Source of the DNA: a virus
Virus record (IMG/VR): IMGVR_UViG_3300035107_000125
Location: 1 to 40,575 of that record
Direction: 5' to 3' (one strand)
Length of the DNA: 40,575 bases
The position numbers were made by a program, and so were the translations under genes. Positions 19,525-24,908 of the stretch are shown piece after piece; position 1 is the stretch's first letter; each line of letters opens with the position of its first letter. The notes beneath the pieces are model-generated. The model was not told the origin of the DNA, did not search any database, and worked only from the letters and a program-made list of their open reading frames with translations.

Positions 19525-20616
19525 ATGCCTTTCGCTCCGATTCCCGTTTCAACTGAAGATCTTGTTTCTTACCTCACCAACTCCTGTGGTACTGAGGTAG
19601 GCACCTCTCACCTGCTTGAAGCATCAGAGCACTTTGATTGCTCTCTTGCTACTGTAAAGAATCGTCTTTATAGGTACAAAAATGGTATTGGTAAGTGGGA
19701 TCTTACTATCCAAGAAGCACGTAAACAACTTGAAAACACTGTAACTCTCAAGCAAAACCTTATCCCTCAGATCGATGATTCCTTCGTCAAGTTCGGTAAT
19801 TACAACGATGTACGCAAAATTATTCAATCGAAACTGTTTTATCCGACGTTCATTACGGGAATGTCTGGTAACGGTAAAACGTTCTCTGTTGAACAAGCGT
19901 GTGCCCAACTCGGACGGGAACTCATCCGTGTAAACATTACAATCGAAACCGATGAAGATGATCTTATTGGCGGTTTCCGCCTTGTTGATGGCAACACCGT
20001 CTGGCACAATGGCCCAGTCGTGGAGGCACTCGAACGAGGTGCTATCCTGCTCCTTGACGAGATCGACCTCGCCTCTAATAAAATTCTCTGTCTCCAGTCA
20101 ATTCTTGAAGGGAAAGGAGTATTCCTTAAAAAGATCGGCAAACGGGTTGACCCTGCAAGTGGATTCAACGTCTTCGCCACTGCCAACACTAAAGGTAAAG
20201 GTTCAGACGACGGACGATTCATTGGAACTAACGTGCTCAACGAAGCATTCCTAGAGCGTTTCCCTGTTACCTTTGAGCAAGAGTATCCTTCTGCTTCTAT
20301 TGAGAAGAAGATTCTCTCTGCTTCCTGTGATGATGAGAAGTTTGTTTCTCACCTGGTTGATTGGGCAGGCATCATTCGTAAGACATTCTATGATGGTGGT
20401 ATCGATGAGATTATTTCTACTCGTCGTCTCGTTCACATCATTCGTGCTTACAGCATTTTCTCTGATAAAGCAAAGGCAATTAAGGTCTGCCTGAATCGCT
20501 TTGACGATGAAACAAAACAATCCTTCCTTGAACTCTATGATAAAGTCGATGCAGACATCCAACTTGAAGAATCTGTGGAACCAGTACAAGCAGGTTCTGT
20601 GGGAGACATTTCCTGA
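19525..20616 (+). CDS. cobS: CobS-like AAA+ ATPase
   Basis: 363 residues from the ATG at 19525; an upstream in-frame TTG at 19486 lies inside the stem-loop and is unlikely. Residues 10-60 look like a small helical DNA-binding-like or adaptor region (HFDCSLATVKNRLYRYKNG). The MoxR-type AAA+ core has Walker A GMSGNGKTF at 112-120, Walker B LLLDEID at 175-181 and a sensor region FNVFATANTKGKG. cobS is a common cyanophage gene, often named for cobalt insertion into cobalamin; MoxR/VWA pairs elsewhere act as chaperones or remodelling machines. The 3' end overlaps pebS. Confidence 0.9.
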   Translation: MPFAPIPVSTEDLVSYLTNSCGTEVGTSHLLEASEHFDCSLATVKNRLYRYKNGIGKWDLTIQEARKQLENTVTLKQNLIPQIDDSFVKFGNYNDVRKIIQSKLFYPTFITGMSGNGKTFSVEQACAQLGRELIRVNITIETDEDDLIGGFRLVDGNTVWHNGPVVEALERGAILLLDEIDLASNKILCLQSILEGKGVFLKKIGKRVDPASGFNVFATANTKGKGSDDGRFIGTNVLNEAFLERFPVTFEQEYPSASIEKKILSASCDDEKFVSHLVDWAGIIRKTFYDGGIDEIISTRRLVHIIRAYSIFSDKAKAIKVCLNRFDDETKQSFLELYDKVDADIQLEESVEPVQAGSVGDIS

Positions 20617-21190
20617 TCTCCAACTAGATGATAACTGGGCAGAGTGGTCTAACAAAGATGCTAACCTCTCTGCCAACATCTATACCAATCAATACATCAT
20701 CAAGTCCAGAGAAGTTGAGATATGGGATAACAAGTCCTCTATCTACAACAACATCATCTATCCAAAGACAGGACAAAACTTACCTTGCTTTGGAATGGAC
20801 TTGATGGGGTTTTTTGAAAAGAAAGTCATTTTAGTATTTGACTTCCAACATCCTGTAGAGAATCATTTGTTCTCAGTTCCTGGGTTGCCGAAAGCAGAAG
20901 GGACATTTAGATTCTTTGAACCAGGCAATCACTTCTCTGAGAACGTGTATGTTCGTAAATGCACAATGTCTGAAGTCAACAATTACCTTGATGATTTCCG
21001 TGCCTATTTACAAGCATACAAATCTATGCTAGAATCAGAGAAACCCAGTGGGTTTGCAACATACTCTACTTACGGGGACTTCGACAGATACATGAAGAAG
21101 TTAGATCCCGTGAGTGGTTATCTTGACAGCAAGTTTGGCAAAGAGAAATCTGAGTCACTTGTAAATGATTTTTTATTTTGCTATGACTAA
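20501..21190 (+). CDS. pebS: Phycoerythrobilin synthase PebS
   Basis: Ferredoxin-dependent bilin reductase that turns biliverdin into phycoerythrobilin in two two-electron steps; a phage-specific enzyme that does the job of host PebA plus PebB. 229 residues from the first ATG, close to PebS of cyanophage P-SSM2 (233). Both catalytic aspartates are present: Asp100 in LPCFGMDLM (PebS Asp105) and Asp202 in KKLDPVSGY (PebS Asp206), which separates it from PcyX-type enzymes lacking the second. Family-typical ILVFDFQHP and FRFFEPGNHFS occur. The start is uncertain (ATG at 20501, 20507, 20537 or 20549, none with a clear ribosome site), but similarity to PebS already begins upstream of the cobS stop, so the two genes truly overlap in different frames. 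Confidence 0.93.
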   Translation: MTMKQNNPSLNSMIKSMQTSNLKNLWNQYKQVLWETFPDLQLDDNWAEWSNKDANLSANIYTNQYIIKSREVEIWDNKSSIYNNIIYPKTGQNLPCFGMDLMGFFEKKVILVFDFQHPVENHLFSVPGLPKAEGTFRFFEPGNHFSENVYVRKCTMSEVNNYLDDFRAYLQAYKSMLESEKPSGFATYSTYGDFDRYMKKLDPVSGYLDSKFGKEKSESLVNDFLFCYD

Positions 21191-22239: not shown

Positions 22240-23187
22240 ATGTCTCGTAATGAATTTCTCTGGGTTGAAAAGTATCGACCCAGGAAGATTGACGATTGTA
22301 TTCTTCCAGAAACAACGAAGAATACATTCAATGAATTTTTGAACACTGGACAGATTCCTAACCTTCTTCTGTTCGGCACCGCTGGTATCGGTAAAACTAC
22401 TGTCGCAAAAGCACTCTGTGAACAACTGGGTGCTGATTATATTGTTATTAACGGATCTGACGAAGGACGTGCAATTGACACAATACGGAACAAGGTCAAA
22501 GATTTTGCTTCGACCCTCTCACTTTCTAGTGACTCCAAACACAAAGTCGTTATTGTTGACGAAGCTGACAACACAACCAGTGATGTACAACTCGCTCTAC
22601 GGGCAAACATTGAGGCGTTTTATGGTAACTGTAGGTTTATTTTTACCTGCAACTACAAAAACAAACTCATCGAACCTCTTCACTCCCGATGTGCAGTCGT
22701 CGATTTTTCCATCCCAGGAAAAGAAAAGAAACTTCTGGCAGGAACCTTCTTCGACCGTCTCAGGTTTATACTTGAGGAAGAAGGCGTACAATATGATCCA
22801 AAAGTACTTCCACAAATCATCCTGAAGTTCTTCCCTGACTGGCGTCGTACTCTTAACGAGTGTCAACGTTATGCAGTCGGTGGAGTTATTGATAGTGGTA
22901 TTCTTTCTAGTTTGTCTGATGTCAGGTTCAATGAATTGACTCAAGCACTGAAGAGTAAACAGTACACGACTGTTAAGAAGTGGGTGTCGAGTAATCTTGA
23001 CAACGAACCTTCTCATATCTTTAGGTCCATTTATGATAATCTTTATCAGTGTCTGGAACCTAGAACCATTCCTCAAGCGGTATTGATTATTGGCAAGTAT
23101 CAATATCAATCTGCATTTGTTGCAGATCAGGAAATCAATTTACTTGCTGCCCTTACTGAAATGATGGTGGAGTGTGAATTCAAATGA
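22240..23187 (+). CDS. gp44: Clamp loader large subunit gp44
   Basis: AAA+ ATPase that opens and loads gp45 with gp62. 315 residues (T4: 319). FLWVEKYRPRKIDDCILP at the start, Walker A GTAGIGKTT at 46-54, Walker B VDEAD at 106-110, and the SRC arginine finger at 149-151 are all intact. It overlaps the following gene by four bases. Confidence 0.96.
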   Translation: MSRNEFLWVEKYRPRKIDDCILPETTKNTFNEFLNTGQIPNLLLFGTAGIGKTTVAKALCEQLGADYIVINGSDEGRAIDTIRNKVKDFASTLSLSSDSKHKVVIVDEADNTTSDVQLALRANIEAFYGNCRFIFTCNYKNKLIEPLHSRCAVVDFSIPGKEKKLLAGTFFDRLRFILEEEGVQYDPKVLPQIILKFFPDWRRTLNECQRYAVGGVIDSGILSSLSDVRFNELTQALKSKQYTTVKKWVSSNLDNEPSHIFRSIYDNLYQCLEPRTIPQAVLIIGKYQYQSAFVADQEINLLAALTEMMVECEFK

Positions 23188-23708
23188 ATCTTGATTTTTC
23201 TCGTATTAATTTAAAAGAGTTCTTTGGTTGTTGCAATGCAACCAACACCAAAGAGATGAAGTCCAACACATTTAAATCTTTCCGAACATATCTTCAAGAG
23301 AAGTCGTTTGCAAAGTGGAGTGATAACCAAGTTCGTTATGTTGGAGATCACATGGATGGAGTTGATTTTATTGGTGAAGATGAAACACATTATGAGATGA
23401 AAGGATCTCTCAAACTCTTCAATAAGAACGGATCTACAAAGGTAATTACTTTGAAGAACTTTCAAGGTAACTCAAAGAAAGTAGAAAAAACATTTGAGTA
23501 TATGTTCTTGGTAGATACTGAGAACATGTCTCTTGCATATACTGACTGGGACACTGTTGAGAAACGTGTTTATTTTACTCCCAGTTCTCCAACAGCAAAG
23601 GTTAAGTTTCTTCCAGGGGACTTTACAATGCTTGCTACAAATATTGAACCTGCACCCAAAAGCATCACTGCATCTGATATACTTGACGGCGTTGAGCGTA
23701 TCCTGTAA
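23184..23708 (+). CDS. Putative PD-(D/E)xK endonuclease beside dam
   Basis: 174 residues, not resembling gp62, which normally follows gp44. Residues 58-73 read DGVDFIGEDETHYEMK: Asp61, then Glu71-x-Lys73, preceded and followed by predicted strands, the arrangement of the PD-(D/E)xK fold of many type II restriction enzymes. It overlaps gp44 (ATGA) and shares one base with the start of a Dam-type methyltransferase (TAATG). Together they look like a restriction-modification pair or a host-DNA-degrading nuclease with a self-protection enzyme. The nuclease call is inference from one motif plus neighbourhood. Confidence 0.6.
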   Translation: MNLDFSRINLKEFFGCCNATNTKEMKSNTFKSFRTYLQEKSFAKWSDNQVRYVGDHMDGVDFIGEDETHYEMKGSLKLFNKNGSTKVITLKNFQGNSKKVEKTFEYMFLVDTENMSLAYTDWDTVEKRVYFTPSSPTAKVKFLPGDFTMLATNIEPAPKSITASDILDGVERIL

Positions 23709-24559
23709 TGACAAAATTTAAAACACCCCTTCGATATCCTGGTGGAAAATCCAGGGCAATTAAATTTTTAGATCAGCATCTCCCACAATTTGACAAGTTC
23801 TATGAACCATTCCTAGGTGGTGGTTCTATGGCACTCCACGTGACCCAGACCCGTCCTAGGACAGAGGTGTGGGTCAATGACTTGTATTACCCTCTATATT
23901 GCTTTTGGTTGACTCTCCAGCAGCATGGTGAGCGTCTTACTCATGACCTCAGAGAACTGAAGACAGAACTAGGTGAGAGTTTGACTGCTCATCGTGAAGC
24001 ATTCGAGAACTCTAAGGCAGCACTGGTAGGCACGGATCAATACACTATTGGATTTAACTTCTATGTTGTGAATAAGTGTTCCTTTAGTGGGTTATCTGAA
24101 TCATCTTCTTTTAGCAAGATGGCATCACAGCAGAACTTTACCTTCAGAGGTATTGATAAACTTCCATACATTTCAGAACTGATTCAGTTTTGGAGAATTA
24201 CTAATCAGGATTATTCTGAATTGCTTTATGGTGATGATGCATTTGTATTCCTAGATCCTCCTTATGACATTAAGGATAACTTGTATGGTAAAAAAGGATC
24301 TATGCACAAAGGTTTTGATCATGAACTCTTTGCTGCTCAATGCAATAACTCACAACAAACATGCATGATCACTTACAATTCTGATGCATTTGTCAAGGAA
24401 AGATTTCCTGGATGGACTGCACAAGAATGGGATCTTACATATACTATGAGATCTACGACCACTTACACACGTGACCAAAAGAAACGTAAAGAACTTCTTT
24501 TAACTAATTATGAGCAAGTACCAGTATCCCTTGACGGATTATTTAAAGACGATCAATGA
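23708..24559 (+). CDS. dam: Dam-type DNA adenine methyltransferase
   Basis: D12-class N6-adenine methyltransferase. 283 residues (T4 and E. coli Dam are 259 and 278). AdoMet motif I is FYEPFLGGGSM near residue 32, preceded by the family-typical TPLRYPGGKSRA; the catalytic motif is DPPY in VFLDPPYDI near residue 182. The family often methylates GATC, which is frequent in this window, but the target cannot be read from sequence alone. It lies between the clamp-loader genes 44 and 62 and overlaps gene 62 by 50 bases. Confidence 0.92.
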   Translation: MTKFKTPLRYPGGKSRAIKFLDQHLPQFDKFYEPFLGGGSMALHVTQTRPRTEVWVNDLYYPLYCFWLTLQQHGERLTHDLRELKTELGESLTAHREAFENSKAALVGTDQYTIGFNFYVVNKCSFSGLSESSSFSKMASQQNFTFRGIDKLPYISELIQFWRITNQDYSELLYGDDAFVFLDPPYDIKDNLYGKKGSMHKGFDHELFAAQCNNSQQTCMITYNSDAFVKERFPGWTAQEWDLTYTMRSTTTYTRDQKKRKELLLTNYEQVPVSLDGLFKDDQ

Positions 24560-24908
24560 GTCCAAGAACAATTTGATGGATGGTGATGATCCAGGTTGGG
24601 AAAAAGAATATCCTGCCTGGGTCATTACTAAGTGCTTGTCTCATCATTATGACACTGTGCTACTAGCGAATGAGATGAATCTCAACTCGCAACTCCCAAG
24701 TAAACTTCAGTATGATTTTTATATAAATATCGTTAGGAAGAGAAAGCGTTTCTCGCCCTGGGATAAGAAAGTAAAACTAGATGATCTTGAGTGTATCAAG
24801 GAATACTACAACTATAGTACCGAGAAAGCACAAGCAACTCTAAAGATACTAAATAAAAAACAAATTGAGTTTATTAAATTGAAATTAAACCGTGGAGGAA
24901 AAGCATAA
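24510..24908 (+). CDS. gp62: Clamp loader small subunit gp62
   Basis: Non-ATPase subunit of the clamp loader. 132 residues, shorter than T4 gp62 (187). The central stretch CLSHHYDTVLLANEMNL followed by RKRKRFSPWDKK aligns with ALSQFPECMPAVYAMNL and PRGKRYGKWAKL of T4 gp62. The start inside the dam gene (50-base overlap) fits the MSKYQYPLTDYLKTIN opening typical of cyanophage gp62. It shares one base with regA. Confidence 0.88.
   Translation: MSKYQYPLTDYLKTINESKNNLMDGDDPGWEKEYPAWVITKCLSHHYDTVLLANEMNLNSQLPSKLQYDFYINIVRKRKRFSPWDKKVKLDDLECIKEYYNYSTEKAQATLKILNKKQIEFIKLKLNRGGKA

What the first reader, a model, noticed from the sequence alone, without database searches (positions are those of the whole stretch)
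23184..24559. Putative nuclease plus Dam pair inside the clamp-loader operon
In T4-like phages gp44 is followed by gp62. Here two genes separate them: a 174-residue protein with Asp61...Glu71-x-Lys73, the metal site of many type II restriction enzymes, and a D12-class adenine methyltransferase. All junctions are overlaps of 1-50 bases, so the pair is built into the operon. GATC, the usual Dam target, is common in the window, so the phage does not avoid it and would need protection. This could be a phage-encoded restriction-modification unit used against host or rival phage DNA, expressed with the replisome.
Basis: partly seen in the sequence, partly recalled or inferred. Interest (0 to 1): 0.72.

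Follow-up and report, generated by a model that had tools for sequence, protein, structure and literature searches.

The report
Cyanophage replisome-operon restriction-type nuclease
Many uncultured cyanobacterial viruses carry, inside their DNA-replication gene cluster, a small protein that looks like a restriction enzyme and usually sits beside a DNA-modifying enzyme; it may let the virus cut DNA that lacks its own mark.

Summary
The layout is real: gp44, a 174-aa ORF, a D12 methyltransferase, gp62, joined by 4-, 1- and 50-base overlaps. A methyltransferase in that place is ordinary in cultured T4-like cyanophages; only the 174-aa gene is unusual. It was not found in INPHARED phages, PLSDB plasmids or GTDB contigs, but 209 IMG/VR stretches encode relatives. 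Asp61, Glu71 and Lys73 are invariant, and the AlphaFold model (pLDDT 93) matches PD-(D/E)xK restriction enzymes (Eco15I, NhoI, DpnI, NaeI). In 85 of 106 contigs it lies directly before the methyltransferase; others adjoin a DruA-domain protein or another D12 methyltransferase. Against a simple restriction-modification pair: the methyltransferase is nearer to the GGCC m4C enzyme M.CbeI than to GATC Dam; nuclease and methyltransferase trees conflict; most sampled methyltransferase or DruA loci lack the nuclease; it leaves no avoided motif of its own. Best reading: a phage restriction-type endonuclease that works with whichever DNA-modification gene is resident, perhaps for host-DNA degradation (cyanophages reportedly lack T4 denA/denB). 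Activity, target and protection are untested. A strong RGCY avoidance found on the way does not track the nuclease.

The parts
22240..23187 (+). gp44 clamp-loader large subunit
   Evidence: phrog_168 E 3.7e-127; PF21328 Gp44_lid
23184..23708 (+). 174-aa predicted PD-(D/E)xK endonuclease ('nuc'); 4-base ATGA overlap with gp44
   Evidence: AlphaFold2 pLDDT 93, pTM 0.88; Foldseek Eco15I 1.3e-4, VIA Z 9.9 DpnI
23364..23366 (+). codon of Asp61, predicted metal ligand
   Evidence: invariant in 51 of 51 distinct homologues
23394..23402 (+). codons of Glu71-Met72-Lys73, predicted ExK motif
   Evidence: invariant in 51 of 51 distinct homologues
23708..24559 (+). D12-class DNA methyltransferase, annotated Dam in relatives but closest to M.CbeI (GGCC, m4C); 1-base TAATG overlap with nuc
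   Evidence: PF02086 3.8e-25; 7m6b E 3.9e-49; TIGR00571 below cut-off
24510..24908 (+). gp62 clamp-loader small subunit, 50-base overlap with the methyltransferase
   Evidence: PF16790 7.5e-11; phrog_225 1.7e-46

Best explanation
The 174-aa protein is a restriction-type PD-(D/E)xK endonuclease of T4-like cyanophages, translated with the clamp-loader genes. It cuts double-stranded DNA that lacks the phage's own modification (host chromosome, perhaps rival phages), while newly made phage DNA is protected by the DNA-modification enzyme encoded next to it. It is an optional module that docks beside whichever modification gene is resident (M.CbeI-like D12 methyltransferase, DruA/GNAT-domain protein, other methyltransferases) rather than one half of a fixed, co-inherited pair. 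Shown here: gene, fold class (predicted model), conserved active-site residues, selection, linkage, exchange of neighbours. Inferred: cleavage, discrimination by modification, use against host DNA.
For: Fold and active site. Purifying selection. Of 106 contigs: 85 methyltransferase directly 3', 3 after a gap, 3 DruA directly 3', 6 another D12 methyltransferase directly 5', 7 none seen in the flank, 2 end at nuc. Of those 7, three end within 1.1 kb of nuc; one has an SPPY-type methyltransferase about 1.0 kb 3'; one a PF01555 methyltransferase about 2.5 kb 5'; two a weak NPPF methyltransferase-like ORF 1.5 kb 5' (PF02384 E 0.062). In 15 of 80 DruA-bearing loci nuc is the next scored gene before DruA. 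DUF4338 (the DruA domain) is called a GNAT domain in PMC10853773 (passage). [quoted passage not shown]
Against: No activity, target or modification was measured. The methyltransferase and DruA occur without nuc in most loci sampled and in the cultured records, so they have other work. No 4- to 6-base motif was found to be avoided specifically in nuc-bearing phages. That DruA modifies DNA is inference. In the clamp-loader operon a modification gene was present with or without nuc, so adjacency there is weaker evidence than the six damB contexts and the few others. Two contigs have only a weak methyltransferase-like ORF in reach.
Confidence: 0.42

Rival explanations
1. A true type II restriction-modification pair: nuclease and adjacent methyltransferase recognise the same site, as the first reader proposed (but probably not GATC).
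For: Direct adjacency in 85 of 106 contigs, 62 of those with the window's own spacing; restriction-enzyme fold; methyltransferase kin to M.CbeI, the modification enzyme of a restriction system.
Against: Trees conflict: L009+L021+L113 has support 98 for the methyltransferase but is rejected for nuc (AU p 2.2e-5); L113 with L111/L116/L121 has support 98 for nuc but is rejected for the methyltransferase (p 0.017) (groups chosen after seeing the trees; a further conflict over L031/L106 was not significant, p 0.093). Nuc also neighbours DruA, another D12 enzyme and an SPPY-type enzyme. Distance correlation nuc-methyltransferase 0.64, methyltransferase-gp62 0.89.
Confidence: 0.2
2. A free-standing mobile (homing-like) endonuclease that spreads into the gp44-methyltransferase slot.
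For: The slot takes many cargo genes in relatives, including HNH-like ORFs; nuc presence needs at least 9 changes on the best gp62+regA tree, 4 forced by starred branches; I-Ssp6803I, a homing endonuclease, matches at Z 6.6.
Against: Docking beside modification genes at different loci, purifying selection, weaker fold match than to restriction enzymes.
Confidence: 0.2
3. A replication or recombination nuclease (RecU/Hjc-like) working with the clamp loader.
For: Position in the replisome operon; Hjc Z 6.2 and RecU-type entries Z 5.4-6.1.
Against: Lower Z than restriction enzymes; not found in cultured relatives with the same replisome genes; also found outside the operon.
Confidence: 0.08
4. 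A modification-dependent nuclease (DpnI/Eco15I-like) that cuts DNA carrying a foreign methyl mark, from host or rival phage.
For: DpnI, and Eco15I and NhoI solved with methylated targets, are the top fold matches.
Against: 3ndh (ThaI, name recalled) and NaeI match at Z 9.2 and 9.0, within one unit of DpnI; the model has no second, reader domain (DpnI has one, recalled); the phage's own methyl mark would have to be spared.
Confidence: 0.1

Closest known systems
PD-(D/E)xK restriction endonucleases (Eco15I, NhoI, DpnI, 3ndh/ThaI, NaeI, PvuII)
   Same: Core fold and D...ExK active site; size near PvuII (chains of 150-157 residues)
   Different: No sequence-level homologue among them (phmmer best hit E 1.2, an unrelated capsid protein; best profile hit YdcD E 0.0053); encoded in a phage replisome operon
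M.CbeI / DmtB alpha-class N4-cytosine methyltransferases (GGCC)
   Same: Closest solved relative of the neighbouring methyltransferase, residues 5-269
   Different: Target of the phage enzyme not known; its cultured relatives occur without this nuclease
Cultured T4-like cyanophage clamp-loader operons (S-RIM8, S-RIM12, ACG-2014b, ACG-2014g, S-SM1)
   Same: Methyltransferase between gp44 and gp62; no or one to three small genes before it
   Different: No relative of this nuclease found; S-SM1 and ACG-2014g have an HNH-like ORF there, and S-SM1 a distant PD-(D/E)xK-like protein elsewhere
Chlorella-virus restriction enzymes such as CviJI, and T4 EndoII/EndoIV (all recalled)
   Same: Virus-encoded endonucleases used against host DNA
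   Different: No homology tested; resemblance of role only, inferred

Membership tests
PD-(D/E)xK nuclease superfamily | Conserved Asp ... (Glu/Asp)-x-Lys | tested here: met
   D61, E71, K73 in 51 of 51 distinct sequences
PD-(D/E)xK nuclease superfamily | Common core fold | tested here: met
   predicted model: Foldseek E 1.3e-4 prob 1.00; VIA Z 9.9, 133 aligned, 3.5 A
PD-(D/E)xK nuclease superfamily | Metal-dependent DNA cleavage | not testable with these tools
   needs protein
Type II restriction-modification system | REase and MTase genes together | tested here: met
   85 of 106 directly adjacent
Type II restriction-modification system | REase and MTase share one recognition site | not testable with these tools
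   neither site is known
Type II restriction-modification system | Co-inherited as a unit (expected, not strictly defining) | tested here: inconclusive
   tree conflict over L113, groups named after seeing the trees; r 0.64
GATC Dam family (TIGR00571) | Score above curated cut-off | tested here: not met
   91.5 against 114.85 bits
M.CbeI/DmtB alpha-class m4C GGCC methyltransferases | Homology over most of the protein | tested here: met
   7m6b E 3.9e-49, residues 5-269 of 283
M.CbeI/DmtB alpha-class m4C GGCC methyltransferases | N4-cytosine methylation in GGCC | not testable with these tools
   needs methylome or in vitro assay
Free-standing homing endonuclease | Spreads to one fixed site in lineages lacking it | tested here: inconclusive
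   several gains or losses, but more than one genomic setting

The most novel reading that the evidence does not exclude
A partner-agnostic phage restriction system: a replisome-expressed restriction-type nuclease whose self-mark is supplied by whichever modification enzyme occupies the neighbouring slot, serving as the missing host-genome-degrading nuclease of some T4-like cyanophages.
Probability: 0.22. Interest if true: 0.75.

Novelty: new variant of a known kind. Interest (0 to 1): 0.5.

Why it matters
T4-like cyanophages are reported to lack the T4 host-DNA-degradation genes, and how they break down the host chromosome is open (PMC2984593, passage). A restriction-type nuclease built into the replication operon next to a DNA modifier is a concrete, testable candidate. 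The finding also warns that the gene often annotated as Dam in cyanophages may not be a GATC adenine methylase.

Tried and rejected
GATC as the protected site: rejected as an assumption, because the methyltransferase is nearer to M.CbeI.

CCGG absence as a nuclease footprint: rejected. CCGG is absent in nuc-bearing and nuc-less cyanophages alike and near normal in some nuc-bearing ones.

RGCY as the nuclease's site: rejected as unsupported. Ranked over 4-mers, AGCC, GGCC and AGCT were the most depleted in nuc-bearing relative to control phages, and a first comparison of 33 against 11 sets gave p 0.001. With more loci (80 against 46, medians 0.14 and 0.18) and a tree, 4 independent pairs on starred branches (9 on all branches) show no effect; that test has little power. 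DruA loci are as depleted with nuc (97/574) as without (309/2113). RGCY as the methyltransferase's site is also unsupported: the DruA loci have no M.CbeI-like gene in the stretches fetched, though it could lie elsewhere in those genomes except in G011, where PF02086 found none in 47.6 kb. C-to-T decay was not supported.

EcoRI-like label for the ORF beside damB: a motif reading by eye and from memory; the model was poor (pLDDT 37) and no PDB match was found. AATT depletion in its carriers is the only independent support. That second model was not searched against fold libraries. HNH-like for slot ORFs is likewise partly by eye (best Pfam support PF21368 E 0.0037, below cut-off; one tblastn match to a record named PacI).

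Dropped rows: one search used only loci of at least 6 kb (126 kept), another the 101 with gp62 and regA. One search used 47 of 106 contigs with all five genes, 30 after removing near copies. The search for related loci returned the best 80 of 165, 209, 164 and 162 nuc relatives, so the 105 contigs are not all of them.

Full report
Setting. The window is a 40,575-base uncultured virus record. Its T4-like core genes (gp20, gp21, gp23, uvsW, gp55, gp46, cobS, gp45, gp44, gp62, regA, gp43, uvsX, gp41) match cultured cyanophage S-SM1 at 42-77% identity, so it is a T4-like cyanophage.

Observation. In five cultured Kyanoviridae the methyltransferase already lies between gp44 and gp62: directly in S-RIM8, after one to three small genes in S-RIM12, ACG-2014g, ACG-2014b and S-SM1. 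In P-SSM2 it lies downstream of gp44 after two small genes and denV; gp62 was outside the stretch seen. Relatives of the window methyltransferase occur in 423 of 50,697 phage records, nearly all cyanophages. The 174-aa protein has no match there at E 0.01, none among 72,556 plasmids and none confirmed in GTDB contigs, where 36 stretches matched a pattern. In IMG/VR, 209 stretches encode relatives.

What the protein is. D61, E71 and K73 never vary. The model is confident (pLDDT 93, pTM 0.88). Foldseek's first ten PDB rows are Eco15I, NhoI and DpnI. VIA gives DpnI 9.9, Eco15I 9.7, NhoI 9.3, 3ndh (ThaI, name recalled) 9.2, NaeI 9.0 and 8.7, then a drop to 6.8 and below. The top five are within one unit and do not tell a methyl-dependent from an ordinary restriction enzyme. 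A structural relative in S-SM1 (E3SI79 in BFVD, 170 aa) is probably SSM1_072, by its length and by being the best though weak profile match (E 0.077) among ORFs of the 115 kb of S-SM1 searched; it keeps D and ExK. It lies next to a helicase gene, not next to the methyltransferase. dN/dS of nuc is 0.04-0.14 in 7 pairs.

Who its neighbours are. Of 106 contigs (105 plus the window): methyltransferase directly 3' in 85; after a gap in 3; DruA-domain protein directly 3' in 3; another D12 methyltransferase directly 5' in 6, each with a further short ORF upstream; none seen in 7; contig end in 2. Of the 7, L014, L015 and L023 end soon after nuc. L024 has an SPPY-type methyltransferase about 1.0 kb downstream, L077 a PF01555 one about 2.5 kb upstream, L070 and L073 only a weak methyltransferase-like ORF 1.5 kb upstream. 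In most contigs other genes lie between gp44 and nuc, while the nuc-methyltransferase junction is tight.

Controls on that linkage. Among 80 loci nearest to the ACG-2014b methyltransferase, 3 show nuc; several of the rest are cut off upstream. Among 80 loci nearest to the L133 DruA-domain protein, none shows the M.CbeI-like gene in the stretch fetched; 15 have nuc next before DruA, 57 do not, 8 are cut off on that side. So modification genes occupy this place with or without nuc, and nuc docks beside either kind. The slot is also a general cargo site: HNH-like ORFs, 2OG-oxygenase-like ORFs and others occur there (read by eye).

History. Methyltransferase distances follow gp62 (r 0.89); nuc follows other genes less closely (0.64 with the methyltransferase, 0.57 with gp44, 0.72 with gp62; 30 non-redundant contigs). 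Trees of nuc and methyltransferase conflict over L113 (groups chosen after seeing the trees). A second apparent conflict, over L031/L106, was not significant (p 0.093), and the placing of L009, L010 and L021 is not a firm conflict, since the nuc tree allows both readings. Nuc presence needs at least 9 changes on the best gp62+regA tree, 4 forced by starred branches.

The methyltransferase is probably not a GATC Dam. Its nearest solved relative is 7m6b, M.CbeI, described as an alpha-class N4-cytosine methyltransferase protecting GGCC, with kin DmtB of Anabaena acting on the inner C of GGCC (passages of PMC8616854 and PMC3425538). The phage enzyme's target is unknown; the damB-type enzyme beside nuc in six contigs does pass the TIGR00571 cut-off (138.5 bits).

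Footprints. If a phage nuclease cut an unprotected site, that site should be rare. In five sets carrying the short ORF beside damB-type methyltransferases, AATT is depleted (G003 168/673, G060 19/79, G061 31/66; S-RIM2 27/88, S-BM1 20/71), against 0.76-1.04 in the seven other cultured phages. For nuc no such motif was found. It is therefore protected, has a rarer site, or does not act on phage DNA.

Function. Cleavage of unmodified host DNA is the reading I favour, because of the fold, the neighbouring modifier and the reported lack of denA, ndd and denB in cyanomyoviruses (PMC2984593, passage). It is inferred, not shown. Searches for a prior description (no paper, of which 20 of 58, 2 of 2, 12 of 12 and 12 of 41 papers were listed) showed none that, by title and abstract start, describes this gene; no paper was read beyond the passages cited.

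Noticed in passing
whole window; G001-G064 contigs; cultured T4-like cyanophages: RGCY (AGCT, AGCC/GGCT, GGCC) is strongly depleted against a synonymous-codon shuffle: window 24/258, G001 59/1003, S-PM2 17/51, P-SSM2 19/77; highest set 0.36; pelagiphage HTVC008M 56/139. Stretches of hosts WH7803 and RCC307 (1.07-1.09), podoviruses P-SSP7 and Syn5 (1.00-1.16, though GGCC alone is 4/29 in P-SSP7) and T4 (1.00) show none. It does not track nuc. Cause unknown.
   Followed up: partly
window (CCGG 0/22); G001 0/99; S-SM1 pieces CCGG 0/91 and GTAC 0/302; G009 TTAA 0/196; G027 ACGT 0/72; G029 CGCG 0/29: Single tetranucleotides are absent, different ones in different cyanophages.
   Followed up: partly
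L034:4574-5107, L406:10001-10546 (S-RIM2), L407:8001-8537 (S-BM1): A hypothetical ORF found in 65 Synechococcus phage records, close to a DNA adenine methylase gene and a helicase gene in S-RIM2 and S-BM1, goes with AATT depletion; possible unannotated AATT restriction enzyme.
   Followed up: partly
L408-L487: A cyanophage clade has a DruA-domain (DUF4338) protein before gp62 in place of the methyltransferase: 80 of 80 loci of that search, none with the M.CbeI-like gene in the stretch fetched.
   Followed up: partly
window 20501-21190: A ferredoxin-dependent bilin reductase gene (PF05996 1e-15) lies between cobS and gp45; its listed TTG start overlaps cobS.
   Followed up: no
pooled nuc-bearing and control contigs: GTCGAC, GACGTC and AGCGCT are almost absent (both strands counted: 0 of 158, 157 and 72 expected in nuc-bearing contigs; 4/80, 2/66, 2/61 in controls).
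   Followed up: no
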